Of a DNA stretch of 38,574 nt, positions 11,253 to 38,574 are shown piece after piece. How positions within the stretch are numbered: position 1 is the first letter of the stretch; each line of letters starts with the position of its first letter. Source of the DNA: a virus. The notes beneath the pieces are model-generated. The model was not told the origin of the DNA. It saw nothing but the letters and a program-made list of their open reading frames with translations, and did not search any database. The position numbers and the translations under genes were made by a program. The stretch covers positions 1 to 38,574 of the IMG/VR virus record IMGVR_UViG_3300009413_000023. One strand, given 5' to 3'.

Positions 11253-12995
11253 ATGTCAAAGGTAATATCCAGAAGCAGGTGTCCCAAATGTGCCTTAGCT
11301 GGCAACGACACCGCTGGTGATAATCTTGCTATCTATGAAGATGGCGGTAAGTATTGTTTTGCTTGTAATTATGTACAAAAAGGATCTAATAATTTGAGTA
11401 ATAAAACAGAAGAAGAAGCCTATGTTCCTCCTCCGAAGACAAAGAGTCCTAATGGTCTTAGGTTTCTTAAAGGAAACATTACAGCTATTCCAGAACGAAG
11501 AATCAATGAGGACACCTGTCGTAAGTATGGCTATGAAACCTTAGTCAGTAATGGCAAGCGTGTAGAGATTGCTTCGTTCTCTAGGGATGGAACAGTAGTA
11601 GGACAGAAACTACGGGGTCCTAACAAGACCTTCCAATGGAGAGGACAAACTATCAACACTCCTTTATGGGGTCAAGAATTATTCAAGGCCAAGGGTGGTC
11701 GTATGATCACAATTACTGAAGGTGAGATAGACTGCTTGTCTGTGTCCCAACTTCTGAATAACAGATGGCCTGTAGTTTCTTTACCTAATGGTGCCGCCGG
11801 TGCTGCCAGAGCAATCAAGGATAACCTTGAGTTTGTTTCTTCCTATGATGAGATCATCCTGATGTTTGATCAAGATCAATCTGGTCGTGATGCAGTTCAA
11901 GCAGTAGCCCAGCTATTACCTCCCGGTAAATGTAAAATAGCCAAGCTACCTTACAAGGATGCTAACGAATGCCTCGTGAAGGGTCAGGGGAAAGCTGTAG
12001 TAGCTGCTATCTGGGAAGCCCAGCATTACAGTCCAGATGAGATTGTTCATGTATCTCAGATCATTGCTGATCCAAACATGGAACACACTAGAGTATACCC
12101 CTTTCCGTTCGACAATTTGTCTGAGTTCTTACTTGGTCAGCGGAGTGGTGAAATTACTCTTTGGGCTAGCGGTACTGGGAGTGGGAAGTCTACTATCCTT
12201 CGTGAGCTCATGCATCACCACCTGATAGAGGGTCGTAGTGTAGGTGCGATCATGCTTGAAGAGTCTCCTCAAGAGACTGTTGATGATATGGTCTCTTTGA
12301 TCTTGAGTAAACCTGTTAGAGCCATTCGAGCCAAGAAGCTTATGAATGAACTTAGAGAGAAGCTTGGTAAACCTAGTATTGAAGTTGATATAATTAATGA
12401 TCTAACTGATGAGGAATATGCTGAAGCAAGGAGAATGCTTGAGACCACCAGTCTCTATGTGTACGATCATCTTGGTCATTCTGCTTTGGATAATCTTTGT
12501 GCAAGAATGGAATTCATGGCAGTATCCTTAGGAGTTGATGTCATCGTTCTTGATCACATCACTGCTGCTGCTGCTGGTTTATTGAATACTTCCTCGGACT
12601 ATGATAATTCTAATTCCGAGAGACTGTTGATTGATAATATCATGAAGGAACTAAGAGCACTGGTCAGTAGAACAGGTGTTAGAATTGATGTGGTATCCCA
12701 ACTCAAGAAGACAATTAAGTCTTACGAAGAAGGGGATCGTGTTACACTACAAGACCTTAGGGGCTCTGGTTCTTTAGCCTCTGTACCTAATGTTGTTGTT
12801 GCTCTTGAACGAGACAGGCAGAATCCAGATCCTGTGATTGCTAACACTACGACAGTTAGAGTTCTAAAGAACAGACTAACAGGTAGGGCTGGTGTTGCTA
12901 CATGTTTATTCTATGATCGTTGTAGTGGTAGACTTAAGGAACTTGACTTTGCAATTGCTGACGATGGTAGAGTTATTACTGATCCAGAAACATGA
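11253..12995 (+). CDS. Primase-helicase, T7 gp4-like, 580 aa
   Basis: Bifunctional replication enzyme: it makes RNA primers and unwinds DNA ahead of the polymerase. Seen in order: a Cys4 zinc ribbon (C10, C13, C35, C38), a TOPRIM primase core with its Glu (E156 in TEGEID) and metal Asps (D206, D208 in FDQDQSG), then a RecA-type helicase with Walker A GTGSGKST (K312), Walker B VIVLDH, the sensor VVSQL, and a C-terminal ALERDR with an arginine-finger candidate. The length equals T7 gp4 (566 aa). The GAGG just before ATG supports the start. It overlaps the sulfotransferase by 4 bases (ATGA). Confidence 0.95.
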   Translation: MSKVISRSRCPKCALAGNDTAGDNLAIYEDGGKYCFACNYVQKGSNNLSNKTEEEAYVPPPKTKSPNGLRFLKGNITAIPERRINEDTCRKYGYETLVSNGKRVEIASFSRDGTVVGQKLRGPNKTFQWRGQTINTPLWGQELFKAKGGRMITITEGEIDCLSVSQLLNNRWPVVSLPNGAAGAARAIKDNLEFVSSYDEIILMFDQDQSGRDAVQAVAQLLPPGKCKIAKLPYKDANECLVKGQGKAVVAAIWEAQHYSPDEIVHVSQIIADPNMEHTRVYPFPFDNLSEFLLGQRSGEITLWASGTGSGKSTILRELMHHHLIEGRSVGAIMLEESPQETVDDMVSLILSKPVRAIRAKKLMNELREKLGKPSIEVDIINDLTDEEYAEARRMLETTSLYVYDHLGHSALDNLCARMEFMAVSLGVDVIVLDHITAAAAGLLNTSSDYDNSNSERLLIDNIMKELRALVSRTGVRIDVVSQLKKTIKSYEEGDRVTLQDLRGSGSLASVPNVVVALERDRQNPDPVIANTTTVRVLKNRLTGRAGVATCLFYDRCSGRLKELDFAIADDGRVITDPET

Positions 12996-13645
12996 TTGTA
13001 GTATCAGGTATGCCCCGAAGTGGGTCAAGTCTAATGATGCAAACCCTAAAGCATCTTGGAGTTCCCCTTATTGGTGAAGACAGTTATAACTTTGAGGGTA
13101 ATAGTTATCTCCACAGTCAAGATATTTCTGATGAAGATCAAGAAAGGATAACAAAACACAATCCTTGGGGTTATTATGATATTCCTTTTGAAGAACACCG
13201 TAACTATACACATAATCCCCATAACGGGGAGGCTATAAAAATTCTAGGCCCTGTGTTGATTTCCTTTATACCTAATGAAAACATAGAACGTGTGTTATTA
13301 TGTGAGCGTAGAGATAAGGATGCCCAAGCAACAAGCTATGAAAATCTAGCAAAACTAGATGTAGAAGTTATGGATAAAGAGATCAGTGATGGACGCATGG
13401 ATCCTTCGAGTGTGCGAGCAAGGTCTATAGAAATATACAGAACTATGAACTTCAAAGATTATAGGAGGTTAGTTAATTTTGGTCAACTATCTATCCAACG
13501 GTGGTGGCGAGACCGCAATATTAAGTTCATGACTTGTTTTTATGAGGACATGCTCGAAACTTCCGAGTTGAGTATCAGAGAAATACAAAATTTCTTAGGT
13601 CTACAAGGACCAAGAGATAAAGCGATAGAAAATATAAGGAAATAA
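12992..13645 (+). CDS. Sulfotransferase-family protein, 217 aa
   Basis: N-terminal P-loop GMPRSGSS (residues 6-13) is the 5'-phosphosulfate-binding loop of sulfotransferases (G-x-x-R-S-G-(T/S)-S). ERRDKDAQATSY (105-116) fits the 3'-phosphate-binding motif, with Arg and the later Ser. In known enzymes this domain moves sulfate from PAPS to an alcohol or amine. The acceptor here is unknown: a virion protein, a sugar or a host surface molecule are all possible. It lies between primase-helicase and DNA polymerase, overlapping the former by 4 bases, so it is expressed with replication genes. I see no PAPS-making genes in the window. Confidence 0.75.
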   Translation: MIVVSGMPRSGSSLMMQTLKHLGVPLIGEDSYNFEGNSYLHSQDISDEDQERITKHNPWGYYDIPFEEHRNYTHNPHNGEAIKILGPVLISFIPNENIERVLLCERRDKDAQATSYENLAKLDVEVMDKEISDGRMDPSSVRARSIEIYRTMNFKDYRRLVNFGQLSIQRWWRDRNIKFMTCFYEDMLETSELSIREIQNFLGLQGPRDKAIENIRK

Positions 13646-22313: not shown

Positions 22314-24260
22314 ATGACAACCGATCCTCAGGCTTTAAACTTAACAGCGTCTACTACTACGTATAATGGAAAGAAAGTCGTAGTTAGTAATCAAAGTGCA
22401 GTACTTTCTTTATCTGCCAATGCATTAGTTACAGCTGCGGTTTCTTCGCAGTTAGTTCCTATTACTTTAGCTGGAGTTAATATCTCTGATGCTTATACTA
22501 ATGGAGCTGCTGCGGTTGCTGCTACTACTACACTTACATTTGATGATGATATTGAAACCACAAGTTTGTCAACTGACCCCTATGTACAATTTACTGATGC
22601 TGGAGGACAGACAAGGACTTACTTTGGAGTGAGTACACTTGGAGTCTCCGGCTCAGCTACCTTTACATTTGATAAGGCTGCTGTTCTGGATTCTACTATT
22701 ACACTTATTTCCTATATGGACGGTGTAACTACTACGGTAATCTTCAAGGCTGCTGCTAGGGGGACAACGAATGGTTCCAAATCAGGTGAGTATACTTTGT
22801 TTGCCATAGACGATGCCACTTCAACTGGTGAGCCTGCCTCTGCTATCGATTCTGCCGCAAACTTAGTGGCTGCTATTAATTCAGCTAATGGTTTGCCGGA
22901 CCTAGAAGCTTATGCTAATCGGGTATCAGATACTGACGAAACAACGGCCAATGGTAAGGTTTATTTAAAGGGACGGGATGCTGATGACGGTACTAATACG
23001 GCAATTACACTTTCAGTAGCTACTGCTGCTACAGGTACTGTAACTATTACAGACTTCACCAAACTAAATACTGGAGATAAGATAAACCTGATTGCTACAG
23101 ACACCACTAACTATGATTTTGTTAATGGCGATCAAAGTTCGGTGGCGGGAACGTGGGAATCCACAAGCTCCAACGCTGTCACAGCTACTAATTTGATGAA
23201 CGTCATTAATACTTCATCGGGTCCATCGGGAACAAGGTTCACTGCTTCTGCTGCGGTATCAGAAGTACAAGCGGTAGGAACAGTAACTATTACAGCCTTT
23301 ACCGAACTCAATGCGGGTGATAAGGTAAACCTAATTGCTACTGATGGCACTAACTACGATTTTGTTAATGGTGATCAAAGTTCAGTCGCCGGTACATGGG
23401 AATCCACAACATCTAATGATGCCACAGCTACTAATTTAATGAATGTTATCAACACCTCATCAGGTCCAGCTGGAACTAGATTTACTGCTACGGTAGATGG
23501 GGCTGTGGTAACTGTTACTCAGGCTACGTCTGGTGCAGATGGTAATACTACAGTTACTCTAACAGACAGCGGAACTGCTGGCATGACCAAGGCAAATTTC
23601 ACTGGTGGCGTAGACACAGGGGTAGTAACTATTACTCAGGCCACGGTTGGTGCAGCTGGTAATACCACAATTACTCTAACAGACCCGCTTGATGGGATGT
23701 CAAAAACAGATTTCACTGGTGGTGGTGCCTTTACAGATTCTACCAGTGTTAATCCTCCCGCCGCTTTTACGGGTGGTGTTGATGAGACTGTAGACATTTC
23801 TAAGAACAAGTGGTCTCGTAAAGGTAGTGCAGAGAATGCTGCTGAATCCCTGAAGGATGCTATTAACGAGACAAGTTCAGGCCATGGTTATACTGATGGC
23901 TTGACAGCAACTCGGAGTGGGGCTGTCCTAACGATTACCCAAGATGTTGCAGGAGCTACGGGAAATACTGCTGTTTCTTATAATAACGAGTTTCAAGAGG
24001 TCTGTTCTGTTCTTCCGCAAGATTTTAAAGGTGGCGCTGTAGCGAATAGACCTAAGCTTGGGATTCAATACTCTACTAATGGTACTGATTGGACTTCTGC
24101 GGTTGAGATAGCTTCTGATGTAGCTGCAAATGTAACAGGAATTAAATTATTTACTTTACCCGAGGCGGTGACTTCTTATCCAGCATACAGGCTAATATTT
24201 AATTCTGATTTAGCAACAGCTGGGACCACTGGCAGACTTACCTTTGTCGGGGCCTATTGA
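22314..24260 (+). CDS. Repeat-rich structural protein, 648 aa
   Basis: Beta-rich, Thr/Ala/Gly-rich, no transmembrane or signal segment. It contains two near-identical 81-residue modules (FTxLNxGDKxNLIATD..., about residues 241-402) and at least three shorter modules built on TITQATxGAxGNTTITLTD and FTGG. A distinct C-terminal domain (RPKLGIQYSTNGTDW...) follows. Such serial Ig-like or jelly-roll repeats are typical of virion surface or decoration proteins. It sits between portal and scaffold with no gap to the portal, so a head-surface fibre or decoration protein is likely; no enzymatic motif is seen. Confidence 0.72.
   Translation: MTTDPQALNLTASTTTYNGKKVVVSNQSAVLSLSANALVTAAVSSQLVPITLAGVNISDAYTNGAAAVAATTTLTFDDDIETTSLSTDPYVQFTDAGGQTRTYFGVSTLGVSGSATFTFDKAAVLDSTITLISYMDGVTTTVIFKAAARGTTNGSKSGEYTLFAIDDATSTGEPASAIDSAANLVAAINSANGLPDLEAYANRVSDTDETTANGKVYLKGRDADDGTNTAITLSVATAATGTVTITDFTKLNTGDKINLIATDTTNYDFVNGDQSSVAGTWESTSSNAVTATNLMNVINTSSGPSGTRFTASAAVSEVQAVGTVTITAFTELNAGDKVNLIATDGTNYDFVNGDQSSVAGTWESTTSNDATATNLMNVINTSSGPAGTRFTATVDGAVVTVTQATSGADGNTTVTLTDSGTAGMTKANFTGGVDTGVVTITQATVGAAGNTTITLTDPLDGMSKTDFTGGGAFTDSTSVNPPAAFTGGVDETVDISKNKWSRKGSAENAAESLKDAINETSSGHGYTDGLTATRSGAVLTITQDVAGATGNTAVSYNNEFQEVCSVLPQDFKGGAVANRPKLGIQYSTNGTDWTSAVEIASDVAANVTGIKLFTLPEAVTSYPAYRLIFNSDLATAGTTGRLTFVGAY
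23034..23500 (+). repeat. Tandem 243-bp repeat (two copies) in the structural gene
   Basis: Unit 1 begins at 23034 and unit 2 at 23277; the period is 243 bp, an exact 81 codons. Protein identity between the two is very high over most of the unit, with mainly synonymous and a few conservative changes. A recent in-frame duplication is the simplest explanation. Confidence 0.85.
23503..24042 (+). repeat. Shorter TITQAT/FTGG repeats (about three copies)
   Basis: Copies start near 23515, 23623 and 23923, each with V-T-I-T-Q-A-T-like strands, GNTT and a closing FTGG or FKGG. The spacing of the first two is about 108 bp (36 codons); the third is more diverged. They follow the 243-bp repeats in the same gene. 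Confidence 0.6.
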
Positions 24261-24469: not shown

Positions 24470-25456
24470 ATGGGAATAGAAACTCCTTTGCGTAAGCTAG
24501 AAATTATTGGTAATACTACAACTAGTATTTTAAAAGCTAATCACTCTAATCTTATTTCAAAAGGTTCGAGAGAGTATGTCCTTTCTATTAGAGCAGAGCT
24601 ACTCAATGTTCGAAGCTTTAAGATTCCTGAGGATTGGGACACAGACTGGAATATAAGACTTGGTCCTATTTGGACTCCAGCAGAGTTAGGTTCTACTAAT
24701 CTTGTGTGCTGGCTGAGTCCAGAATACTACCATCCTCTAAGTACTGATGATGGTATAATTGCTCAAGCTGAAGACCGATCTGGCAATGGAGTTACTTGGG
24801 AAAATACCAATTCTGATGATTCTTGCCCTGAGTTTACTTCGGCGTTAAATGAATTTAAAGGTATGGGGTTTAATGGATCTCAGTATATATATTCTTTGGA
24901 TGAGTCTGGAGACGGTGAGTTAGATCCCGGTACAGGAGACTTTTCTATAACTATGATAGCAGAGTTTGGTGGAATTAGTACTGCTGAGAAATATGTATTA
25001 GCTTCCGATGTTAGTAGAGGTTTTGCTTTAAGTGTTAAAGAAGTTTCTGGAACTGATAAATATAAAGTTTACTTTGATGGTTCGGCTACAGAAGCTGCGT
25101 TTTCGGTTGATCATACAGTTCCAATAATACTAACTGTAGGCAGGTCTGGAGGTGATCAGTTTCTTAAGTTTGCTAATATTTCTATAAACGATACAGCAAT
25201 TACTGGAACTGAAAATATGGATATTGATAATACTCAGCAATTCTTTATCGGCGGAAGAGAAGGTGTGGCCGATAGATCAGGACAGAATACATTTACTGGA
25301 AATATCTATGAAATTATGTTTTACAATGGTACTTTAAGTACTGATGATATTAAAAACTTGGAAGGGTATCTAGCACATAAATATGCTCAGACATCCTTCC
25401 TATATTCAGAACATCCTTATAAAACTAACCCACCAAGAGCAGGAGTCCCTGCATAA
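24470..25456 (+). CDS. LamG-like (jelly-roll) virion protein, 328 aa
   Basis: Residues about 80-310 fit the concanavalin A/LamG-type jelly roll: CWLSPEYYH, DRSGNGVTW, FTGNIYEIMFYNG and a closing helix with LEGYLAHKY. Such domains bind carbohydrates or decorate the surface. The N-terminal 70 residues may anchor it to the virion. AAGGAAG precedes the ATG. Placed just before the scaffold, it is probably a head-surface or accessory structural protein that could hold the phage near polysaccharide; binding is inferred. Confidence 0.75.
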   Translation: MGIETPLRKLEIIGNTTTSILKANHSNLISKGSREYVLSIRAELLNVRSFKIPEDWDTDWNIRLGPIWTPAELGSTNLVCWLSPEYYHPLSTDDGIIAQAEDRSGNGVTWENTNSDDSCPEFTSALNEFKGMGFNGSQYIYSLDESGDGELDPGTGDFSITMIAEFGGISTAEKYVLASDVSRGFALSVKEVSGTDKYKVYFDGSATEAAFSVDHTVPIILTVGRSGGDQFLKFANISINDTAITGTENMDIDNTQQFFIGGREGVADRSGQNTFTGNIYEIMFYNGTLSTDDIKNLEGYLAHKYAQTSFLYSEHPYKTNPPRAGVPA

Positions 25457-28161: not shown

Positions 28162-28830
28162 ATGGGCGTTATATCAAAGCTCGATGCAATTAATCACATG
28201 CTTCTGATGGCGGGAGAATCCATGGTAACTGATCTTGAGAACTTAGGTGGTGTGGACACGGGGGTCTGTGAGGGTGTGCTAGAACGCACCCTTGTAGACT
28301 TCCAGTCAAGGGGTTTGGCTAATAATAAATATCATAAGAAGTTTAAGCTTGATGCTATCGGAGAGATTAGCCTAGGTTCTGATAATATATCTGCTGAACT
28401 TATATCGGATCACTCTAATAGTGATGGCTTTAGGATCATTGGTGTGTCTCGTGTAGTTAATGAGGGAGATACAACTGCCAAGCTCTTTAACGTAACAGAC
28501 CAGACCTATTCTAACTGGGCTGCTAGTACCGAATACTGGGTAGAACTTGTTGTCAAAGTTCCATGGCAAGCTATGGATACTCCTGTACAACGAGCTATTA
28601 TGGCTACTGCTGCTAGACAATACCAGATTATAATGCAGGGTGATGTTGAGGCTGATAAGTACTTGAATGAGCTTGAGATTATATATACTACCCGAGGTAA
28701 GTGTGCAGATGTAGATGATAAACGAAGGACTATCTTTAGTTCTGGGACTGAGAAGCTTCGTAGTATACACCATCGTAGCAGTACTACTGATACTTCAAGG
28801 TTTAGATACTGGAGGACTTCGAATGGCTAA
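28162..28830 (+). CDS. Tail tubular protein A, T7 gp11-like, 222 aa
   Basis: N-terminus (ISKLDAINHMLLMAGE) and the later VQRAIMATAARQYQIIMQGD helix match gp11-type proteins, which join the portal to the tail tube. The length is close to T7 gp11 (196 aa). AGGAGG lies before ATG. It overlaps the tail tube B gene by 8 bases. Confidence 0.9.
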   Translation: MGVISKLDAINHMLLMAGESMVTDLENLGGVDTGVCEGVLERTLVDFQSRGLANNKYHKKFKLDAIGEISLGSDNISAELISDHSNSDGFRIIGVSRVVNEGDTTAKLFNVTDQTYSNWAASTEYWVELVVKVPWQAMDTPVQRAIMATAARQYQIIMQGDVEADKYLNELEIIYTTRGKCADVDDKRRTIFSSGTEKLRSIHHRSSTTDTSRFRYWRTSNG

Positions 28831-31800
28831 GACTACTGGTAGACAAGCCACTAGGGCTTCTAGGGCCCAGTCATATTTCCCAGTAAAGATACCCGTTTAC
28901 TCCTTAAGTGGAGGAGTCGGTAGACAAATCCCTAGTAAGAGACTTCCTACTGAGGTAGATGAGCTTATTAATTTCCAATGTACAACGGAATCTTCCCTTA
29001 CAAAGAGGAACGGTGCTGAGGTTGTGGGGAATCTTATTGTAGGAATCTCTGATTTACAGGATGACGGTACTGATATCGAATTCGATCTAAATAATTGGTT
29101 CGTTTCTTCGGTGCCGGAGAAATTCTTTATTTATTGGCAAACAGTAGATACCGAAATTAGCCGTCTCTATACTATCTGGGAAGGTGATCCTTGGCTTGGG
29201 TCTGAGAATCATCATAAGATAAAGGTTTTTGAAATAACCCTCAGTGGGAGTATTACAGAATTACCTTATAATAATTTAGATGAAGATTCTGTTAACTATT
29301 TAATGTATAAAATACCCGGAACTGGTAAAACTCTCCAACAAAGGCTGAAGGCTGTGACGATAGGTTCTTCGGTTCTTATTTTGAATACCGATGTTCATGC
29401 TGGGTTTACTAGTAGATTGGATGGAACTGATGACTGGCATGATGATGACGGCGATACAAATGGAAATGGAGCACTAAAGTATTTCGACGGGACTGTACCC
29501 ACGACTGTCCAAGAAGAAGATATAGCAGGTGCAGACATTCAGTACTTAACTAGTGTATCTGTTGATCATAAACATAATGCTGAGGTTTGGGTAGAAAGTC
29601 AAGACTATACTTATGGTCAGCAGGTTATCGATTCTAACGATCCTGTATATGATCCAAATGAAGATTCTGATGTCTACCCTTACTTAGAATTTAGAGGACG
29701 TATATGGGATGAAGTACGAACTCAAAAAGGAGGCCAGCTTCGGTTTGATTTTACTAGTGCTGTAATAGATTATGTTTTTCCTGCCGAAGGGTCTTCATCC
29801 CCACCTGACCCTACTAATAATGAACTAGGTAATATGATTTCTTTGGTGGGTATTCATCCTGAGGAGGGTGATGCATCCGAAGATGTGGGCAAAACAATTT
29901 CTTATACTTACTGTTTTACACAGGATCATGGTGACAGCGGTGATTCTATAACAACGCTTCATGAGGCTTATGACGTTAGGGGAATGCTGGTTGCCGTTAA
30001 AAAAGATCTTAGCAGTGAGCCAAGATTAGCTAATGGTTGGGCAGATGCAGCAGCATTAGCAGCAGCAATTAATGTTCGTCATTATGCTACTGTTGGAAAC
30101 GATAGTATTTTTGCATTACACGCCACCGCTAATCAGGTTTCTATAGAAGATACTAGTGAATATCCGGGCCGTGTTATTATTCAACAGATATATGGTGAGT
30201 ATGGAGAACAAACAAATACATCTGTCTGGGTAAATGATTATACCGATACTGAAGAAGATGATGATCCTATAACCTACAACCTCAACTTACATACCAAGTC
30301 TTCTATAGACAATACCTTCAGTGGAGGACGAGACCCTAGTATACACGATATCTTTGCTCCTACGTGGGATGGTGCGGATGGTGGTGCTCCTGATTATTGG
30401 TTAGATATTGCTGGTGGAGATATTGAACGTAATCAAATACGACTCCGATACGGTATTTGGGAAGTTAAAACATATCTTCCAGCAGAAGAGATTCCGGGTC
30501 CGACAAATAAACTATTATCAGAGTCTGAAGAAAATCCAAGAGGATCAATCTTACCCCCTCATTTAGATTTAAAGAGGTGGAAAAGAGTGGAAATCGAAGA
30601 AGGAGACACAGAGCTTGTAGACGTTGCTGGTAACGCGTGTAATGTTCATGTATCTAGTTATATTCCAGTAGAAGAGTATGTTTATCCAGTAAGCTTATCA
30701 GCATATCTTGGGCAATCTGTAACTAGGTTCTCTGACCTTCGATTCCCTCCTGATGCAACGGATTTGATAGCTCATAATGGTATTGGTAAGGATCCGTGGG
30801 CTGGTGGTGGTGAACCAAATGAAAATGCTTTAACTGTATTATATCCTGATGATGACCCAGCCGGTCATCCCGGTCGTGGCAAGATATACTACCTTTCACA
30901 GGCTTATCTTAATAATACACCGGGCTGGTACCGTGTTATTAAAAAGGACATACCTCCTTATCTAAAGAAGATTCGAACACCGGGCAAGAGAACTGTACTA
31001 GACAAAAGACGAATGCCCCAGATGCTCTATGTAGATAATGAAGGTGACTATAATCTAAGACCAATAGACTGGGACCCAAGAGAAAGTGGTGATGAGGATT
31101 CAAACCGTGGACCGGGTATCTTCTTTGATCCGTCTACTGAAAAACCAAAAGAATCCAAGATTAATTCAATGGCTTTCTATAGAGACCGCTTATTCTTGGC
31201 TAATGATGATACTATTATAGCCAGTAGATCAGGAAACTGGGATAACTTCTTTTTAGCAGACCCAGATAATATTACTGATACAGATCCACTTGACCTTATG
31301 GTGTCTTCTAATAACTATACCCCTATTACACAGCTTGTACCCTTTAGAGATACGCTGTTTGTAGGAACAAGCGGTAATACCCAGTATGAGCTTCAAGGAT
31401 CGAACAACATTATCTCTCCAGCCACAGCTGAGTTTGCTCCGACAGCTTTCTATCCTATGCTTCCTGATATTTCACCTCTGTTGCTAAATAATAGCCTGTT
31501 CTTCTACAGTAAAGAGAAGCTTTATGTTTACATAGGACAAAGAACGGTAGCAGCAGAACAGGCCTTCGAATTATCGAAGCATATTCCCCAGTATTTACCA
31601 AAAGAAATTAGGGATACGACAACTTCTAGCCATGCTTCCAGTATCTTTGCATTAGATAATGAGTTCACTGATACTACGATTTATGTTTATAGAAACCAAA
31701 TTGCCGGTGAAAAAGTTATTCAGAATGCTTTTTATAAATATAGGATTGGACAATCCTTAGAGATCCAACCTTATCTTGACTTAGGTATAGATGGTCAAAC

Positions 31801-32680
31801 CAGCGCTGGAATTGATCGTATAAGAAAAGGTGATGAGAAACTTATGTTTTTACAATGTTGGGATAAATATTTATATCTAATATCACTTCATTCCCTGCAT
31901 ATTGAGCATCAAAATACAGCAGAAGCTCCTATTGAGAGGTGTCTTTCTCTTCGTAGAGTATCTTTAGATGAAGAACCTATAAATATTCCAAGACTTGATA
32001 ATCTCAGAACAATATATAACTATCCCTTACCAGTACACGATCCTGATACAAATAGAACTACAATTAGAGTTCCGTGGTCCGCTGCTAAAGCAGATACTAT
32101 TGTAACAGAAGAAGGTACATATAATGATGTAATAGATGAAGGTGGAGATATAATACGACTTAAGTATGAGGGTCAAGAAGTTCTAGAAAAAGGTAATAGT
32201 GGGGAAGGAGATATTAATGCAATATATGATTTTTATTCCATAGCAGGAGATCAGGTTTCTTCTGGATACTATCAACTTTTTAGATACATAGGCAATACTT
32301 TTGTCAGTACTACAACCCTTTCTCCGGTCTATTTACGAGACGAGATGAATAACCTAGTTCCGGGAACTTTGAACTTACGTTACGGAACAATCCAAACCTA
32401 TAACTCTCGGGCCTTCGATGTTGAAGTTTCGGTAAACAACAGAGCTCAGACTACCTATAACTTTGATCATGAGATATCAGATGATCGTTGGGTTGATGAT
32501 TATATTGGAAAGACTACTCTTTCTGGAGATATATCTGAACATCAAGTTAGGTTCCCCATCTTAGGATTTACTGAAGACGTTAAGATTACTATTATCAGTT
32601 CTAATCCACATCCATTAAACGTAGCCAGCTTACAGTTTTCCGGTAAGTTTAAGGGCATAACAAGATTCCATAACTCATAG
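28823..32680 (+). CDS. Tail tubular protein B, T7 gp12-like, 1285 aa
   Basis: The frame is open from 28715, but GGAGG (28811-28815) before ATG 28823 marks the start, which gives a conserved N-terminus (GGVGRQIPSKRLPTEVDELI) as in T7 gp12, the nozzle of the short tail. C-terminal landmarks such as FYRDRLFLANDDTI and FRDTLFVGTSGNTQYEL also match. At 1285 aa it is much larger than T7 gp12 (794 aa). The extra mass lies mainly in the middle (about residues 150-700), which could carry additional surface or cell-contact domains; none is recognised. It is followed directly by tailspike 1. Confidence 0.92.
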   Translation: MAKTTGRQATRASRAQSYFPVKIPVYSLSGGVGRQIPSKRLPTEVDELINFQCTTESSLTKRNGAEVVGNLIVGISDLQDDGTDIEFDLNNWFVSSVPEKFFIYWQTVDTEISRLYTIWEGDPWLGSENHHKIKVFEITLSGSITELPYNNLDEDSVNYLMYKIPGTGKTLQQRLKAVTIGSSVLILNTDVHAGFTSRLDGTDDWHDDDGDTNGNGALKYFDGTVPTTVQEEDIAGADIQYLTSVSVDHKHNAEVWVESQDYTYGQQVIDSNDPVYDPNEDSDVYPYLEFRGRIWDEVRTQKGGQLRFDFTSAVIDYVFPAEGSSSPPDPTNNELGNMISLVGIHPEEGDASEDVGKTISYTYCFTQDHGDSGDSITTLHEAYDVRGMLVAVKKDLSSEPRLANGWADAAALAAAINVRHYATVGNDSIFALHATANQVSIEDTSEYPGRVIIQQIYGEYGEQTNTSVWVNDYTDTEEDDDPITYNLNLHTKSSIDNTFSGGRDPSIHDIFAPTWDGADGGAPDYWLDIAGGDIERNQIRLRYGIWEVKTYLPAEEIPGPTNKLLSESEENPRGSILPPHLDLKRWKRVEIEEGDTELVDVAGNACNVHVSSYIPVEEYVYPVSLSAYLGQSVTRFSDLRFPPDATDLIAHNGIGKDPWAGGGEPNENALTVLYPDDDPAGHPGRGKIYYLSQAYLNNTPGWYRVIKKDIPPYLKKIRTPGKRTVLDKRRMPQMLYVDNEGDYNLRPIDWDPRESGDEDSNRGPGIFFDPSTEKPKESKINSMAFYRDRLFLANDDTIIASRSGNWDNFFLADPDNITDTDPLDLMVSSNNYTPITQLVPFRDTLFVGTSGNTQYELQGSNNIISPATAEFAPTAFYPMLPDISPLLLNNSLFFYSKEKLYVYIGQRTVAAEQAFELSKHIPQYLPKEIRDTTTSSHASSIFALDNEFTDTTIYVYRNQIAGEKVIQNAFYKYRIGQSLEIQPYLDLGIDGQTSAGIDRIRKGDEKLMFLQCWDKYLYLISLHSLHIEHQNTAEAPIERCLSLRRVSLDEEPINIPRLDNLRTIYNYPLPVHDPDTNRTTIRVPWSAAKADTIVTEEGTYNDVIDEGGDIIRLKYEGQEVLEKGNSGEGDINAIYDFYSIAGDQVSSGYYQLFRYIGNTFVSTTTLSPVYLRDEMNNLVPGTLNLRYGTIQTYNSRAFDVEVSVNNRAQTTYNFDHEISDDRWVDDYIGKTTLSGDISEHQVRFPILGFTEDVKITIISSNPHPLNVASLQFSGKFKGITRFHNS

Positions 32681-32689
32681 GAGATAGAT

Positions 32690-35575
32690 ATGTCTATTAA
32701 CAACCACGCAAGAAAAACTCTATTGGTTACCTTTACTGATATACCCGCAGGAGGTACCGCGATTTTATCGTCCGCACAGCTAGGAGATCTGTTTGGTTCT
32801 AACGATGAGTCGGGCGGTTATCATAATCTAACAACCGAGAAAAAAGAGGATATCGTTGTTGTTCGTAGGTTTACAGGAAACTTTGTAGATAGTAACTATG
32901 GACCAACTGTTAACGAAGCGTGGAATGCTTGGACATATCCCTATGATAAAGTTGATGGAATAAGTCCTGCTTCTAGTGGAAGTAAGATGTATATTTTAAG
33001 CGAGGTCTCAGGCGGAATAGAACTAGAATTTCCAGAACAGGATTTATATTTTGTTACGGATAAGGGTGATACTGTTAAACTACCTCCTATATCTCCAACT
33101 GATGTTTTCTATGTTATTCGTAAGACAAAGAGTAATAATAAGATCGTCACCTTTGAGCCTTCGGCTAGGATTACTGCAAATAATTTGAACACAGCTCTTG
33201 ACCAGAACTTTTTCTTGGGACAAGAAGCGGAGATGTGGTTCCAAAATTACCACAAGCTTTCTCCAGCTCTTGGAAAGCCTAATGGAATATGTCCATTAGA
33301 TGCGGCGGGTTTAATCCCTACGGAATATATAGCAGGTAAGCATCTCAGTAGAGGTGATGAAGCTGGTGCTAAATGGGATGCTTTAAATCATAGTATAAAA
33401 AACTTACCCCAGCCGACCGCTGATGACTATGCAGCTAATAAACAATACGTAGATGCACAGGCTCAATACGGAGGTGTATTAACCCCTCAGCAAGTAGAGT
33501 TTGCAATTACAGCAGCTGGGACTCACACTGCTGGCACAGATAAGACCTACACTCCGGGACCGACTTGGGCTCAAACTGATGAGGACTTCTTTATTGTCTC
33601 AATAGATGGTGTTCTTCAAATACCAGATACAGATTACGAGATCCCTACTGACACCACCATCAAAATAAAAGGTGATACTCAGGAAGGAGATGTAATCAGT
33701 ATCAGAAACATAGGACGTACTGGTGCTAATACAGTTGGTAGTGCTACTGTAACAAGTACAGGATCTAATACGGGACGAACTTTAGCAGCTAGATTTGCTG
33801 AAAGATATAATATACTAGACTTTGCTGTTGATGGTTATACTCCCGGTGCATCAATCGGTGATGGTATATCAATAGATGCTTCTCCAACATGGAATGCTGC
33901 AATTGTTGGTATTGCTGCCGCTGGTGGAGGAACTATGTTTATCCCGCGTGGGTATTACAGCTTTACTACTCGACCAAAAGAGGTGACTGGTGGTATCAAT
34001 ATTGAGGGAGAAGGTCCACGGTCTGCATTAGTTAAACGATATAACGAAGATGGATTCGGCACATATGCTGGCGCTGAAGGAGTTTATCGTGGTTTGATAT
34101 CGTTTAATGGGGCTACAAACAATAACACCTATATCAAAAGAATTACAGGCTATAACTATGAGGACGGAAGTGAGTCTGGTGATTATGCAGCCCACCTCGG
34201 AAACGGTAGTTTTATTAGTATTGTTGCAGATGATGATGTAGCTGCTCCCGGTAATGTTTGGATTAGTGATGTCCATTGTTCTGCTCAAAGAACTGCCGCA
34301 ACAACGGAATTCCCGTCCCCTTCCTATAAATACTGGAAATGCGGGATATTCCTTGATGGTTCTGAAAAGAGATCAGCAGCATTAGGTATTCGTGGGATCT
34401 ATATGAACGGGTGCAGTATATTTACTGCGGCTGATGCAGCGATAAAAGCTGTTGCGGTTAATCATTTGTTTATACAAGGATGTGAATCAAATGTTGGAAG
34501 AACTGATGATGGAGTTGGTAATACTACGATATGTTGTGGATTGAAACTTGAGGGTGGGCTTCCTGCTGCTGATGGTACTGCTGGTGTTGAAACAGATCGA
34601 CCAGTCATTATGAACTGTGATTTTCAAAGTAACTATGGAATTGAGATAGGAACACTTACGGCAGGTAATCGTGCTATTGTTAGATCAGCACACTTCTTTG
34701 GAAACATAGGACAAATACATCTTGGAGCAAACGCTTTCCACCCAATGATAGTAGGTACTCAAACTAATGCTAGAACAATAGATATAACCACTGAGAAATA
34801 TACTTTACTTACTAATGGCGCTCAAGGAGCAGATCTCGACCCCGGCGAAGCGAGTCACAGCCACATTTATGGTGGTCTTAGGTTACGGGGTCAGGGATTA
34901 ACGGTAGGTGAGGTAAATAGTAGTGATGGAGAGGTTTACTTACCTGCTGATGGAGACCTAGCTCTGTATGGAAAGCTTGAGATAAGTAAGTCCGCAGCTC
35001 CTGCTGCTGCTTCTACGGGAACAATGCGTTTATATTCTGATACTGGTGTATCTCATGGAAATCTTTACGCAAGATTTGATGCTGGAGATCCGATACTAAT
35101 TGCAAGAGAAGACGGACTCAAAGCTATGGTATTAGGCCTTAGTGAGAAACTAGAGGATAGACCCGCAGGACAAAGCTATTGGGTACCCTACACCCATGTG
35201 CAATCTCCACTTGGAGAGAACGTTATTGGTCCTAATCTTGAAACATGGTGGTTAGTTGAAAACTATGGTAATGCCGCACAACCTTTGAAGAGATGGCCTC
35301 TAGCCCATGGATACATAGGTGCCGTGACAGGGACAGGAACGACGTACTCTGGACATATTGAGGATAATGGGACACTTACTTGGACGTTAACAACTGGGGG
35401 AGCTACTGAAGTATATGAAGTGCCTATAAACGGCACTACGAGTCGAGATATTGTTGATTGTGATGCTGGTCCGGATGCGGCTAATTTGGATGATCTAGGA
35501 GACGTTGTAGGGAACCTAGCCGACGTACTTGCAACTCTCCTCTACGATCTACGAAATCGTAAGGTTATAAAATAA
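32690..35575 (+). CDS. Tailspike/tail fibre 1, 961 aa
   Basis: Receptor-binding tail protein. The N-terminal domain (MSINNHARKTLLVTF) probably joins the tail. A middle collar (TPQQVEFAITAAGTHTAG...VSIDGVLQIP) is typical of phage fibres, and from about residue 370 there is a beta-helix/pectate-lyase-like domain (TPGASIGDGISIDASPTWN, then GGTMFIPRGYYSF) of the kind that grips or cuts polysaccharide. The C-terminal end is helical. ATG is preceded by AGGAGA. No catalytic residues can be assigned by eye. Its stop overlaps the small terminase start by one base. Confidence 0.85.
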   Translation: MSINNHARKTLLVTFTDIPAGGTAILSSAQLGDLFGSNDESGGYHNLTTEKKEDIVVVRRFTGNFVDSNYGPTVNEAWNAWTYPYDKVDGISPASSGSKMYILSEVSGGIELEFPEQDLYFVTDKGDTVKLPPISPTDVFYVIRKTKSNNKIVTFEPSARITANNLNTALDQNFFLGQEAEMWFQNYHKLSPALGKPNGICPLDAAGLIPTEYIAGKHLSRGDEAGAKWDALNHSIKNLPQPTADDYAANKQYVDAQAQYGGVLTPQQVEFAITAAGTHTAGTDKTYTPGPTWAQTDEDFFIVSIDGVLQIPDTDYEIPTDTTIKIKGDTQEGDVISIRNIGRTGANTVGSATVTSTGSNTGRTLAARFAERYNILDFAVDGYTPGASIGDGISIDASPTWNAAIVGIAAAGGGTMFIPRGYYSFTTRPKEVTGGINIEGEGPRSALVKRYNEDGFGTYAGAEGVYRGLISFNGATNNNTYIKRITGYNYEDGSESGDYAAHLGNGSFISIVADDDVAAPGNVWISDVHCSAQRTAATTEFPSPSYKYWKCGIFLDGSEKRSAALGIRGIYMNGCSIFTAADAAIKAVAVNHLFIQGCESNVGRTDDGVGNTTICCGLKLEGGLPAADGTAGVETDRPVIMNCDFQSNYGIEIGTLTAGNRAIVRSAHFFGNIGQIHLGANAFHPMIVGTQTNARTIDITTEKYTLLTNGAQGADLDPGEASHSHIYGGLRLRGQGLTVGEVNSSDGEVYLPADGDLALYGKLEISKSAAPAAASTGTMRLYSDTGVSHGNLYARFDAGDPILIAREDGLKAMVLGLSEKLEDRPAGQSYWVPYTHVQSPLGENVIGPNLETWWLVENYGNAAQPLKRWPLAHGYIGAVTGTGTTYSGHIEDNGTLTWTLTTGGATEVYEVPINGTTSRDIVDCDAGPDAANLDDLGDVVGNLADVLATLLYDLRNRKVIK

Positions 35576-35784
35576 TGAATAATAAAGTAAATATATTAAA
35601 CGAACGACTAGCAGATACTCTTTTATTAGACCTTGATGATCCTTCTAAATGTACTCCGGGTCTCTATCAGATTATTAGAGGATATGTTAATGATAATAGA
35701 GAAGCTTTAGATGGTCTACCAAGCGAGGCTTTGGATCACCTTGAGAAGATGACTGATTCTATACCTTTTAGGAGACAAGTATAA
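35575..35784 (+). CDS. Putative small terminase subunit, 69 aa
   Basis: Helical protein with a DDPSKCTPGLYQIIRGYVNDN segment that recalls the (A/C)TPxxLxxxxxFLKDN block of small terminases, which recognise DNA ends for packaging. T7 gp18 lies in the same place, after the fibre gene. At 69 aa it is shorter than T7 gp18 (89 aa). Its start and stop each overlap a neighbour by one base, so it is translated with both tailspikes. Moderately sure. Confidence 0.6.
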   Translation: MNNKVNILNERLADTLLLDLDDPSKCTPGLYQIIRGYVNDNREALDGLPSEALDHLEKMTDSIPFRRQV

Positions 35785-37418
35785 TGGTAACAAGACTAGA
35801 TAAGGCAGGGATAATATCTACTGGAAGTACAACCGAGAGAACTCTAGAAGACAGATTTGGTTTGGGTTCTGGATGGGTAGATATCAGAGACTTTGGTTTC
35901 ACCGATGTTGACGAAGATGTGGATTTTACTCCTTCGTGGAATGCTATGTTGGCGGCGGTAGCTGATTACCAAGTACCCGATAAAGATGGAGTAGGAACTC
36001 GCCCTACAGTTTACTTCCCTGCGGGTCATTATAAATTCAAAAGCAAGCCAAACGCTATTACTACAAGATTAGCCCTACAAGGATCTCCTACTGGTACAAC
36101 TTTTACTAAGGCTTTCAGTAATACGGGCGGAGCTACTGAGGGTTTCATTAGGTTTGCCCCCGGAAGTGGTGGCAGTGATATGTTTGATATCAGTATACAA
36201 CATCATACACTAGAACAAAATGCTGGAGCTGCTATCGCTTTATACGGCGATGGTGCTACTGGGGGTCAAGTTGCAGACCATAGATTCAGCGGAGTTGTGG
36301 TAACATCCGGACGGAGGTATGAGGCGGATGGTGTGACTCCCATAACTGGCGACGAAAGCAGTACGGACCCTAGTACATGGTGGTATGGTTATTGGGATTA
36401 TTGCATGCACGCAGACGGAAGCGAACAGTCTAGTGGACTAAGAGGCCTATGGATTGAAAATTGCAATGCTTTTTTTACAGGTAAGACGGGTTTATTTCTT
36501 GATAGCTGCTGCCACCTCAATGTAAGAGGTGTCAGTGTACAAGTACATCCCAGATGGAATGGTACTGGAGGAATGGATTCTGTAGTTATAACATCCAGCT
36601 ACAACGCGAATAATCCTAATGCTTACAACGGATTTGTAAGCTCTGGTATGTCTGTAGATTTAACTAGTGCTAACGGTCGAGTAGTTATAGCAGACCCCAC
36701 CACAGCTCTTAGTGATTTCGGCGGTACAGCAGATACAGATCCAGTTGTATCAAATGGGACTATAAGAATTCATGGAGTTGGGTCACAGGACAAGCACAAT
36801 AAGATTTTGATAGGACCGCGTGTTAAGGATTTAACTATTATCTCAAGCGGAGATGTTGATTGGATTAAGGATGTAGGTGGTGTACGGACGGTGATGAATG
36901 CTGAGTATGAAACTCCTTTGATTACTGAGAAGACAGGCTCGGCTTTATATGACTATGGAACAGACACTTACAGCACTGACATTGGGGGAGATATTTCTGT
37001 CCTGACTCCTCTTGGATTACGAGAAACTCCTAAGACATTTGCTACGGATAATAAAAGTAATGTAGGGTACACGGGAGATCCCGGTAGTATTGTTTTGTTG
37101 GATAATGCTACAGCTACAGTGACATTCTCCGATGGATTAGTTGGATCACCCAAATCAATAATGTTATTAGTATCAGATGCTGTTGACGGAAGTAGTGCCT
37201 TAATGGCGTTCTCATATAAACAAGCACTTGCTTCCATAGGTGATGGGGTAGTTCACAATAATGGCTTAACTATATCCATTACAGATGACGATGCAGGCTG
37301 GCAATGTACAAAGGCTGCAACGAGTGGAGCTATTGTCTTTACCAATAGAACAAGTGCCGCGGGGACCTTAAGTATTGCCGCCTTTGGTGGTAGAATTACC
37401 AGTCTAGTTGTAACATAG
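35784..37418 (+). CDS. Tailspike 2, beta-helix protein, 544 aa
   Basis: The start (MVTRLDKAGIISTGSTTERTL) resembles the join domain in tailspike 1 (GSNTGRTLAARF...), and the next part (DFTPSWNAMLAA..TVYFPAGHYKF) is the same pectate-lyase-like entrance to a beta helix (in tailspike 1 SPTWNAAI...FIPRGYYSF). The later part contains SGLRGLWIENCN-type helix rungs. The C-terminal domain (KSIMLLVSDAVDGSSALMAF) is separate. It is shorter than tailspike 1 and has no fibre N-terminal domain, so it may attach through another protein. Host-range or depolymerase function is inferred. Confidence 0.82.
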   Translation: MVTRLDKAGIISTGSTTERTLEDRFGLGSGWVDIRDFGFTDVDEDVDFTPSWNAMLAAVADYQVPDKDGVGTRPTVYFPAGHYKFKSKPNAITTRLALQGSPTGTTFTKAFSNTGGATEGFIRFAPGSGGSDMFDISIQHHTLEQNAGAAIALYGDGATGGQVADHRFSGVVVTSGRRYEADGVTPITGDESSTDPSTWWYGYWDYCMHADGSEQSSGLRGLWIENCNAFFTGKTGLFLDSCCHLNVRGVSVQVHPRWNGTGGMDSVVITSSYNANNPNAYNGFVSSGMSVDLTSANGRVVIADPTTALSDFGGTADTDPVVSNGTIRIHGVGSQDKHNKILIGPRVKDLTIISSGDVDWIKDVGGVRTVMNAEYETPLITEKTGSALYDYGTDTYSTDIGGDISVLTPLGLRETPKTFATDNKSNVGYTGDPGSIVLLDNATATVTFSDGLVGSPKSIMLLVSDAVDGSSALMAFSYKQALASIGDGVVHNNGLTISITDDDAGWQCTKAATSGAIVFTNRTSAAGTLSIAAFGGRITSLVVT

Positions 37419-37428
37419 GAGAAATAAA

Positions 37429-37530
37429 ATGCCTAAAGTAGGAAAGAAGAAGTTCCCTTATACTAAAAAGGGGAAGGCGGCAGCCAAAAAGTATGCTAAG
37501 AAGACTGGAAAAAAGAAGAAGAAGTACTGA
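37429..37530 (+). CDS. Lys-rich micro-protein, 33 aa
   Basis: AGGAG lies at 37417-37421, overlapping the previous stop. The product (MPKVGKKKFPYTKKGKAAAKK...) is more than 40% lysine, with no acidic residue at all. Its stop overlaps the next start (TGATGG). A DNA-condensing or packaging-related protein is possible; not recognised. Confidence 0.6.
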   Translation: MPKVGKKKFPYTKKGKAAAKKYAKKTGKKKKKY

Positions 37531-37793
37531 TGGCTCGTAAGCCTATGAAGAAGGTAAAGAAGTCAGCTCAGAATTACCGAAAGAATCCCAAGTCTAAGGC
37601 TAAGAAAGCTACGTATGATACTGCTTATCATTCTACTCCTACTCGTAAGAAGTACCGAGCTAAGCTACAACAGAAGCGTAGGGACAAAGATATAGTAGGC
37701 AAGGGTGGCAAGGATGTCTCCCATAGAAAGAGTGGTGGTACTACCATGGAATCTCCTAGTAAGAACCGAGGCCGTAACAGGGGTAAGAAATGA
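37530..37793 (+). CDS. Very basic small protein (degenerate HNH-like?), 87 aa
   Basis: The product (MARKPMKKVKKSAQNYRKNP...) is dominated by Lys and Arg. It has a centre HSTPTRKKYRAKLQQKRRDK followed by GKGGKDVSHR, which resembles the small phage proteins with an HNH-like DVxH motif found near terminase genes, but the second and third HNH residues are not visible. DNA binding is likely; nuclease activity is doubtful. It overlaps both neighbours and is directly before the large terminase. Confidence 0.6.
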   Translation: MARKPMKKVKKSAQNYRKNPKSKAKKATYDTAYHSTPTRKKYRAKLQQKRRDKDIVGKGGKDVSHRKSGGTTMESPSKNRGRNRGKK

Positions 37794-38574
37794 CTAAAAT
37801 TCCAAAAGAGATGCTCGAAGATTTCCGGAACCATCTTTGGGCATGCTTTAAGTACTTAGGACTTGGTGAGCCAACTCCTACACAGTATGCTATGGCAGAA
37901 CGGTTACAGAATTATGCAGATGATATGCAATTACAAGCAGGTAGAGGTTTTGGTAAAAGTGTAATCACAGCTTGCCTAGCTTCTTGGTTTCTTCTATTAG
38001 ATTCTAATTCTACCATCATGGTTGTATCAGCTACGGGTAACAAGGCTACCGAGTTCATTTCCATGACTCGTAAGATCTTAGATCTAGTCCCTTATTGTGA
38101 ACACCTGAAACCGGGAGATCATACTACAGATAATGCCTTTGCATTTAATGTCGAAGCAAGAACTAAGATAGGACAGGACAAGTCATGCTTTGCACGAGGT
38201 ATCAGTTCTCAGATAACTGGTTCTCATGCTGATTATGTTATAGCAGATGATGTAGAGATCGAGGGTAACTGTGAGACTGCTAATGCACGAGAGAAACTTC
38301 TTAACAAGGTAGCAGAGTTTGAACAAATTCGTAACGTAGGTGGCAGGGTTATCTTTTTAGGTACACCACAGATTAAAGATTCTATATATAATCACCTAAA
38401 GTCGGGGTATAAAGTCACTAAGTTCCCGGCTGTTATGCCGGACAAGAATACCTTTGCAGAAATAGAAGACGTTGATGAGTGGATCTTAGGTCTACACCTT
38501 GAACCCGGAGAGGCTACTCAACCGGAAAGATTTCCAAGTGAAGTTCTTTTAGAACGAATGGCTAAGATCGGACC
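37790..38574 (+). CDS. Large terminase subunit, T7 gp19-like (5' part, runs off the window)
   Basis: ATP-driven packaging motor and nuclease. The start (ATGA overlap with the previous stop) and the first 261 residues are seen. Walker A is AGRGFGKS (residues 50-57), Walker B VIADDVE (about 149-155), and a coupling stretch GGRVIFLGTPQ follows. These are clear matches to T7 gp19-type terminases. The nuclease domain lies beyond the right edge, so catalytic Asps cannot be checked. It marks the late end of the T7-like order. Confidence 0.93.
   Translation, partial: MTKIPKEMLEDFRNHLWACFKYLGLGEPTPTQYAMAERLQNYADDMQLQAGRGFGKSVITACLASWFLLLDSNSTIMVVSATGNKATEFISMTRKILDLVPYCEHLKPGDHTTDNAFAFNVEARTKIGQDKSCFARGISSQITGSHADYVIADDVEIEGNCETANAREKLLNKVAEFEQIRNVGGRVIFLGTPQIKDSIYNHLKSGYKVTKFPAVMPDKNTFAEIEDVDEWILGLHLEPGEATQPERFPSEVLLERMAKIG

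What the first reader, a model, noticed from the sequence alone, without database searches (positions are those of the whole stretch)
28823..32680. Tail tube B about 500 residues larger than T7 gp12
Both ends match gp12-type nozzle proteins, but the middle is much extended, without a recognised domain. In T7 the internal core proteins lie next (genes 14-16). Here they are absent, so part of their function or a cell-surface contact could be carried by the enlarged nozzle.
Basis: inference. Interest (0 to 1): 0.5.

Follow-up and report, generated by a model that had tools for sequence, protein, structure and literature searches.

The report
Enlarged tail-tip protein of marine phages
An uncultured short-tailed phage related to T7 has an oversized tail-nozzle protein because a block of extra domains sits in the part that in T7 faces the bacterial surface; the idea that it replaces missing injection proteins does not hold, because genes that look like that missing set lie just beyond the cut end of this sequence record.

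Summary
The 1285-residue nozzle at 28823-32680 is real: 491 residues longer than T7 gp12 (794). Profile alignment to gp12 spans the protein (E 1.3e-46); 364 of the 491 extra residues fall in the interval that holds the T7 nozzle-TIP domain, and residues ~272-540 form one block there. In 53 aligned nozzles this block is 271-646 aa in 12 rows and 0-28 aa in 41, while the part after residue 720 stays 494-575 aa. The block carries a domain (353-502) without Pfam or PHROG match; among 3614 ORFs of 162 loci the only non-nozzle matches are homologues of the portal-adjacent protein of the same lineage (window 22314-24260). Its predicted fold weakly resembles flagellar-cap FliD and phage sheath domains.

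The compensation idea is not supported: the record is truncated within its terminase gene. Contigs 99.1-99.96% identical over the overlap continue into a conserved series of ORFs (about 240, 340, 150, 1300 and up to 4559 aa in relatives). That these are core proteins is inferred; homology to T7 gp14 was not detected.

Best reading (0.5): a modular, host-facing extension of the tail tip for surface contact. New variant of a known kind.

The parts
28823..32680 (+). nozzle protein (tail tubular protein B, gp12-type), 1285 aa
29399..31009 (+). residues 193-729, interval matching T7 gp12 134-306, which contains the T7 nozzle-tip domain; 537 aa here, 173 in T7
   Evidence: hhalign mapping T7 133 to 192 and T7 307 to 730; tip residues from PMC6702177 and PMC11784390
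29636..30442 (+). residues 272-540: the variable block of extra domains, nearly absent from most relatives
29879..30328 (+). residues 353-502: domain shared with the portal-adjacent protein
31013..32677 (+). residues 731-1285: part of nearly constant length (rest of beta-propeller, fibre dock and platform of gp12 by alignment)
   Evidence: domain names from PMC6702177
28162..28830 (+). tail tubular protein A (gp11-type adaptor), directly upstream
   Evidence: PHROG 446 E 8.2e-19, Pfam Tube E 1.8e-8
22314..24260 (+). 648-aa protein encoded between portal and scaffold genes that carries the related domain
   Evidence: repeats visible in the translation
32690..35575 (+). tail fibre with a T7 fibre N-terminal domain
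   Evidence: Pfam PF03906 E 1.2e-6
37790..38574 (+). large terminase gene, cut by the end of the record; the putative core-protein series lies beyond it on near-identical contigs

Best explanation
The protein is a gp12-type nozzle whose distal tip region is enlarged by a block of about 270 residues (272-540) containing a beta-rich domain that in relatives appears to be multiplied. Shown: the location within the tip interval, the length variation of the block, and its kinship with a second protein of the same phage. Inferred: since gp12 forms a hexamer, six copies would ring the end of the tail, point at the host envelope and act as a secondary adhesin or spacer that engages the outer membrane or surface polysaccharide after the fibres have bound and before the channel opens. 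Ejection itself would be done by the separate series of large proteins encoded after the terminase.
For: Position: hhalign maps T7 gp12 residue 133 to 192 and 307 to 730, T7 184 to 273 and 220 to 546. PMC6702177 places the T7 tip domain in a loop of propeller blade 3 that protrudes toward the outer membrane, PMC11784390 places 264-294 in the tip, PMC12798971 says Q184 faces the host and R205 is exposed near it. Model of residues 1-745: T7 gp12 55-322, Z 10.4, 206 aligned. Variability: block 0-28 aa in 41 of 53 rows and 271-646 aa in 12, residues 721-1285 always 494-575 aa. Against five relatives the block is 34-70% identical with 37-137 gapped positions, residues 731-980 60-89% with 1-12. Modularity: domain 353-502 in 23 nozzle ORFs and 7 other ORFs (5 distinct phages), all homologues of the portal-adjacent protein, of 3614; in none of 3614 shuffled ORFs. 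Fold: FliD Z 6.4 (103 aligned); with the insert alone a chain of the A-1(L) sheath-tube entry Z 6.4 (93 aligned), FliD Z 4.8, Mu, FliC, E217 sheath, E1004 tail chain 137-244 (nozzle by length) Z 4.6. [quoted passage not shown]
Against: No experiment. The insert model is of middling confidence (mean pLDDT 65.4); Foldseek gave no match at E <= 0.001 in PDB or BFVD, the Z values are in the range the tool calls common, and the 16 entries also include two crAss001 virion chains (Z 5.0, 4.7) and a mavirus penton (Z 2.3). No carbohydrate-binding or enzyme domain was found. Residue-level alignment inside the tip interval is uncertain. In PMC6962156 the gp12 substitutions selected on altered LPS (positions 12, 24, 306, 338, 467, 560, 694, 696, 779) lie outside the tip. 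Residues 61-194 are as divergent as the block in some pairs (30-71%), and 981-1285 also have 49-115 gapped positions, partly because L004 and L005 are cut there. L079 has a long block without the detected domain. The phage also has a T7-type fibre and a second spike-like protein, so it may need no further adhesin.
Confidence: 0.5

Rival explanations
1. The enlarged tip is a mechanical extension of the ejection conduit or of its gates: it lengthens or seals the nozzle, for example for a thick surface layer, without binding any receptor.
For: The block lies in the domain that in T7 forms the last narrowing of the channel and whose hairpins contact the ejected gp14-gp6.7 channel. The putative ejection proteins of this group are also far larger than in T7 (up to 4559 aa).
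Against: Relatives with 877-924-aa nozzles have comparably giant downstream ORFs (L184-L186, L191, L192: 4216-4559 aa, four of them cut by the end of the fetched stretch, against 4458 aa, also cut, in long-nozzled L187), so the two do not scale together. The block is the part most variable in length, unlike a gate.
Confidence: 0.2
2. The block is passive decoration: virion surface domains shared between a portal-adjacent protein and the nozzle, with little selected function.
For: The same domain occurs in the protein encoded between portal and scaffold; the block varies from 271 to 646 aa among the 12 long rows.
Against: It is kept in every sampled row of one supported lineage (10 rows, 9) with recurrent motifs, at a functional site of the tail.
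Confidence: 0.15
3. The nozzle replaces missing internal core proteins.
For: No core-protein gene was recognised between nozzle and fibre in the window; the fibre gene starts 9 bases after the nozzle gene.
Against: The record is truncated; near-identical contigs carry a conserved series of large ORFs after the terminase, whose first member has homologues in 19 of 20 related records.
Confidence: 0.05
4. The ORF is a fusion or assembly artefact.
For: Its unusual length; contig L003 of the same population has an in-frame stop near residue 392.
Against: Intact on L002 and intact, often longer, in other phages.
Confidence: 0.01

Closest known systems
T7 gp12 nozzle (tail tubular protein B; Pfam PF25675, PHROG 457)
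   Same: Profile alignment over the whole protein, position after the gp11-type gene, part after residue 720 of nearly constant length
   Different: 491 aa longer; 364 of these in the tip interval, with a 269-residue block of extra sequence
Cyanophage P-SCSP1u nozzle gp23 (806 aa, PDB 8i4m)
   Same: Marine T7-like nozzle with platform, fibre dock, propeller and tip (PMC10575957, passages); sequence match E 2.4e-8
   Different: Close to T7 in size (806 aa)
Flagellar cap FliD D2-D3 domains and phage sheath domains (A-1(L), Mu, E217)
   Same: Weak fold resemblance of residues about 300-505; one relative (L122) has a sub-threshold Pfam Flagellin_IN match, E 0.0082
   Different: No sequence match for the window protein; different parent proteins
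Vibrio phage OWB tail tubular protein B (receptor-binding nozzle)
   Same: A nozzle that contacts a host surface protein (PMC7241545, passages)
   Different: Receptor and binding site of the present protein are unknown; OWB was not compared by sequence

Membership tests
gp12-type nozzle (PF25675) | Profile score above the curated cut-off | tested here: met
   204.8 bits against 27
gp12-type nozzle (PF25675) | Gene directly after a gp11-type adaptor gene | tested here: met
   28162-28830, PHROG 446 and Pfam Tube
gp12-type nozzle (PF25675) | Propeller, tip, fibre dock and platform fold | tested here: inconclusive
   Residues 1-745 modelled: Z 10.4 to T7 gp12 but rmsd 21.9, residues 1-96 of low confidence; 746-1285 covered only by sequence profile
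gp12-type nozzle (PF25675) | Hexamer that closes the tail channel | not testable with these tools
   needs cryo-EM
Flagellin_IN / FliD-type domain (insert) | Profile score above the Pfam cut-off | tested here: not met
   No match for the window insert at E <= 10; L122 insert 16.7 bits, cut-off 22.7
Flagellin_IN / FliD-type domain (insert) | Same fold | tested here: inconclusive
   FliD Z 6.4 and 4.8, within the range the tool calls common
Native T7 tip beta-barrel (insert as its homologue) | Significant profile-profile match of insert domain and isolates' tip segments | tested here: inconclusive
   hhalign E 0.066 and 0.35, probability under 1%; weak fold match to E1004 tail chain 137-244, Z 4.6
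T7-type internal core proteins (downstream series) | Significant match of the ~244-aa protein to T7-type gp14 | tested here: inconclusive
   PHROG 805 internal virion protein E 0.21; A1 against T7 gp14 E 0.26; 49 sequences against 6 isolates probability 3%, E 0.015
T7-type internal core proteins (downstream series) | Conserved series of ORFs: a gp14-sized protein followed by very large proteins | tested here: met
   place differs from T7 (after the terminase)

The most novel reading that the evidence does not exclude
In this uncultured T7-like lineage the nozzle tip is a modular, fast-changing receptor-contact organ. One to several copies of a flagellar-cap/sheath-like domain, shared with a second virion protein of the same phage, ring the tail end and add or tune host contact, parallel to the fibres. 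Tip enlargement at a neighbouring site marks a separate lineage (L029, L034; also seen in L237-L239).
Probability: 0.28. Interest if true: 0.65.

Novelty: new variant of a known kind. Interest (0 to 1): 0.42.

Why it matters
Host contact of T7-like phages is usually credited to the fibres, and the nozzle is described mainly as the gate (general knowledge). A lineage in which the nozzle tip is the part most variable in length, and grows by domains, would make the role of the tip in adsorption testable. No close isolate was found in the phage collection: the major capsid protein is 25.0-26.7% identical to the 25 best of 58 matching records, the terminase fragment at most 40.1% in the 25 listed. 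The group also seems to place very large putative ejection proteins after the terminase instead of after the nozzle.

Tried and rejected
Compensation for absent core proteins: rejected, see above. Enzymatic or fibre domain in the insert: Pfam at E <= 10 and PHROGs at E <= 1 gave nothing for the window's insert. Relatives of the insert in 50,697 phage records by tblastn at E <= 1: none. PDB sequence search with the insert alignment at E <= 10: none. Foldseek of both models: no match at E <= 0.001; the best BFVD match was an uncharacterised protein at E 5.2e-3. A direct BLAST or phmmer link between the 648-aa protein and the window's own insert was not significant (BLAST E 2.8 to 8.7); the link came only with a profile built from 16 nozzle sequences. 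Homology of the downstream ~244-aa protein with T7 gp14: not detected; PDB search: none. No phage-collection matches for three downstream queries (244 aa, 1325 aa, and a 1400-aa piece of the giant ORF). Of the 20 terminase loci without a homologue of the 244-aa ORF, 12 have at most 224 bases to the right, but L083 and L054 have 5.6 and 2.8 kb without a match.

Origin of the block is undecided. Without outgroup, 10 of 11 long rows group together (99/97), with L079 apart (the 'one change' in its group table leaves ungrouped rows out). With six isolates as outgroup, long rows branch near the base and compact ones above them (80/91 and 81/98, one fork drawn open, long-branch warning). So compact relatives may have lost a tip barrel, or the long lineage gained a block.

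Rows dropped: alignment A2 used 43 of 61 candidate rows; the tree used 50 of 53 rows and that 42 of 53 plus 6 isolates (identical or near-duplicate rows removed). Loci are not all distinct contigs (some contigs gave two loci). Literature: searches returned no listing that by title or shown abstract start describes an enlarged nozzle tip in this group; only open-licence papers are held. Papers seen as passages only: PMC6702177, PMC10575957, PMC6962156, PMC12798971, PMC11784390, PMC7241545, PMC7582827. On re-checking, the confidence was lowered from 0.55 to 0.5 because the gp12 substitutions in PMC6962156 lie outside the tip.
Full report
WHAT IS THERE. The ORF 28823-32680 encodes 1285 aa. It is a gp12-type nozzle (Pfam PF25675 E 3e-60; PHROG 457 E 2.6e-64), directly after a gp11-type gene. 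T7 gp12 in NC_001604 is 794 aa, so the excess of about 500 is correct (491). Five other isolates inspected have 792-838 aa. The ORF is intact on L002 from the same population (99.85% DNA identity); L003 (99.68%) has one in-frame stop near residue 392. More distant relatives have intact full-length homologues.

WHERE THE EXTRA RESIDUES ARE. A global profile alignment with T7 gp12 (766 columns, E 1.3e-46) maps T7 133 to residue 192 and T7 307 to 730. The extra residues divide as 59 before, 364 inside and 68 after this interval. The interval holds the T7 tip domain: PMC6702177 describes a loop of propeller blade 3 leading to the tip, which protrudes toward the outer membrane; PMC11784390 assigns 264-294 to the tip; PMC12798971 says Q184 faces the host and R205 is exposed near it. 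T7 184 and 220 map to 273 and 546, close to the two edges of the extra block, although residue-level alignment inside the interval is uncertain. The AlphaFold model of residues 1-745 (mean pLDDT 72.5) aligns with T7 gp12 55-322 (Z 10.4, 206 residues, rmsd 21.9).

VARIABILITY. In 53 aligned full-length nozzles (877-1696 aa; the window's and L002 are one phage) the block between residues 278 and 548 is 0-28 aa in 41 rows and 271-646 aa in 12, whereas residues 721-1285 correspond to 494-575 aa in all. A later scan gave ten more full-length nozzles that do not share their last 500 residues with an earlier row (some identical in length and probably near-copies); all ten lack the block (10-46 aa), while the domain was found in 16 ORFs of that scan, mostly on contigs already counted. 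A different enlargement (250-317 aa at 549-628) marks L029, L034 and L237-L239 (251 aa). Against five relatives the block is 34-70% identical with 37-137 gapped positions; residues 731-980 are 60-89% with 1-12. Residues 61-194 are as divergent in some pairs (30-71%) and 981-1285 have 49-115 gapped positions (two relatives are cut there), so divergence alone does not single out the block; length variation over the 53 rows does.

WHAT THE BLOCK IS. A profile of residues 341-502, iterated over nozzles only, finds the domain in 16 of 59 nozzle sequences (53 full-length rows and 6 partial ones); among the 12 long full-length rows L079 is the exception. Searched against 3614 ORFs of 162 loci it finds 23 nozzle ORFs and 7 others (E 3e-10 to 8e-5), all homologues of the protein encoded between portal and scaffold (window 22314-24260), from 5 distinct phages including the window's; no shuffled ORF matches. 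Of 24 loci with a portal hit and a complete nozzle, the ORF next to the portal carries the domain in 2 of 3 with a long nozzle (L108, L122; not L116) and 0 of 21 with a compact one, although some compact ones have a long ORF there without the domain (L161 582 aa, L093 406 aa). Longer inserts appear to contain additional copies (inspection of the sequences). No library domain, no phage-collection match and no PDB sequence match were found for the window's insert; the L122 insert has a sub-threshold Flagellin_IN match. The insert model (pLDDT 65.4) gave 16 entries at Z 2 or more: a chain of the cyanophage A-1(L) sheath-tube entry (Z 6.4), crAss001 virion chains (5.0, 4.7), FliD (up to 4.8), Mu, FliC, E217 sheath, an E1004 tail chain at residues 137-244 (4.6) and others. 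FliD also appears with the larger model (Z 6.4). These values are low enough to be a common arrangement, and Foldseek found nothing at E <= 0.001.

WHERE THE CORE PROTEINS MAY BE. The window is the whole of a linear virus record ending inside the terminase gene. Contig L010 matches window 33845-38574 at 99.96% and L011 matches 35594-38574 at 99.1%; both continue after the terminase with ORFs of 244, 335, 191 and 1325 aa and an unfinished one, at least 1584 aa on the contig of L010. In 14 downstream stretches (one from the window's own population) the series is 211-279 (14 of 14), 329-354 (12 of 14), 121-228 (11 of 14), 1256-2481 (14 of 14) and a last ORF up to 4559 aa, often cut by the end of the stretch. 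The first has a homologue in 19 of 20 related records and 68 of 88 terminase-bearing loci, in 63 of them starting within about 100 bases of the terminase end, and in none of 41 loci with nozzle and terminase between those two. Twelve of the 20 records are 62.8-70.2 kb, so the window is probably about 60% of the genome (inference; completeness is not given). That these are core proteins rests on order, size and the need for ejection proteins; homology to T7 gp14 was not detected.

MECHANISM. Most likely (0.5) the block is a host-facing extension of the tail tip that takes part in cell-surface contact. Shown: location, length variation, kinship with another protein of the phage. Inferred: outward display in six copies and binding. 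[quoted passage not shown] T7 gp12 acquired substitutions when selected on altered LPS (PMC6962156), but at positions outside the tip, which speaks against a special role of the tip there; three gp12 substitutions enriched in PMC12798971 do lie in the tip interval. Rivals: a mechanical extension of the conduit (0.2), passive decoration (0.15).

VERDICT. The size observation is right, the compensation idea not supported, the surface-contact idea plausible. It is a new variant of a known kind.

Noticed in passing
L184-L196 (downstream of the terminase in relatives): A putative virion protein of up to 4559 aa follows a 1256-2481-aa one; no Pfam domain at E <= 0.1 (L192), no match in the phage collection for a 1400-aa piece.
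   Followed up: partly
L150:15634-21222: A nozzle-like ORF of at least 1863 aa, cut by the locus end, with a long cysteine-rich stretch in its second half, not seen in the 13 other sequences printed beside it.
   Followed up: no
window 22314-24260: 648-aa portal-adjacent protein with at least two nearly identical repeats; in several compact-nozzle relatives the ORF next to the portal is only 138-158 aa.
   Followed up: partly
window 24470-25456: 328-aa protein with a weak LamG-like match (Pfam Laminin_G_3 E 7.9e-4, below cut-off) and PHROG 10356 virion structural protein (E 2e-19).
   Followed up: no
window 35784-37418: Second spike-like protein after the fibre gene, weak pectate-lyase-type match (E 2.2e-4, below cut-off).
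   Followed up: no
window 12992-13645: 217-aa protein whose start looks like a P-loop sulfotransferase motif (recalled, not tested); no PHROG match.
   Followed up: no
L029, L034, L237-L239: Nozzles enlarged at a neighbouring site (residues 549-628 of the window protein); L029 and L034 form their own clade in both trees.
   Followed up: partly
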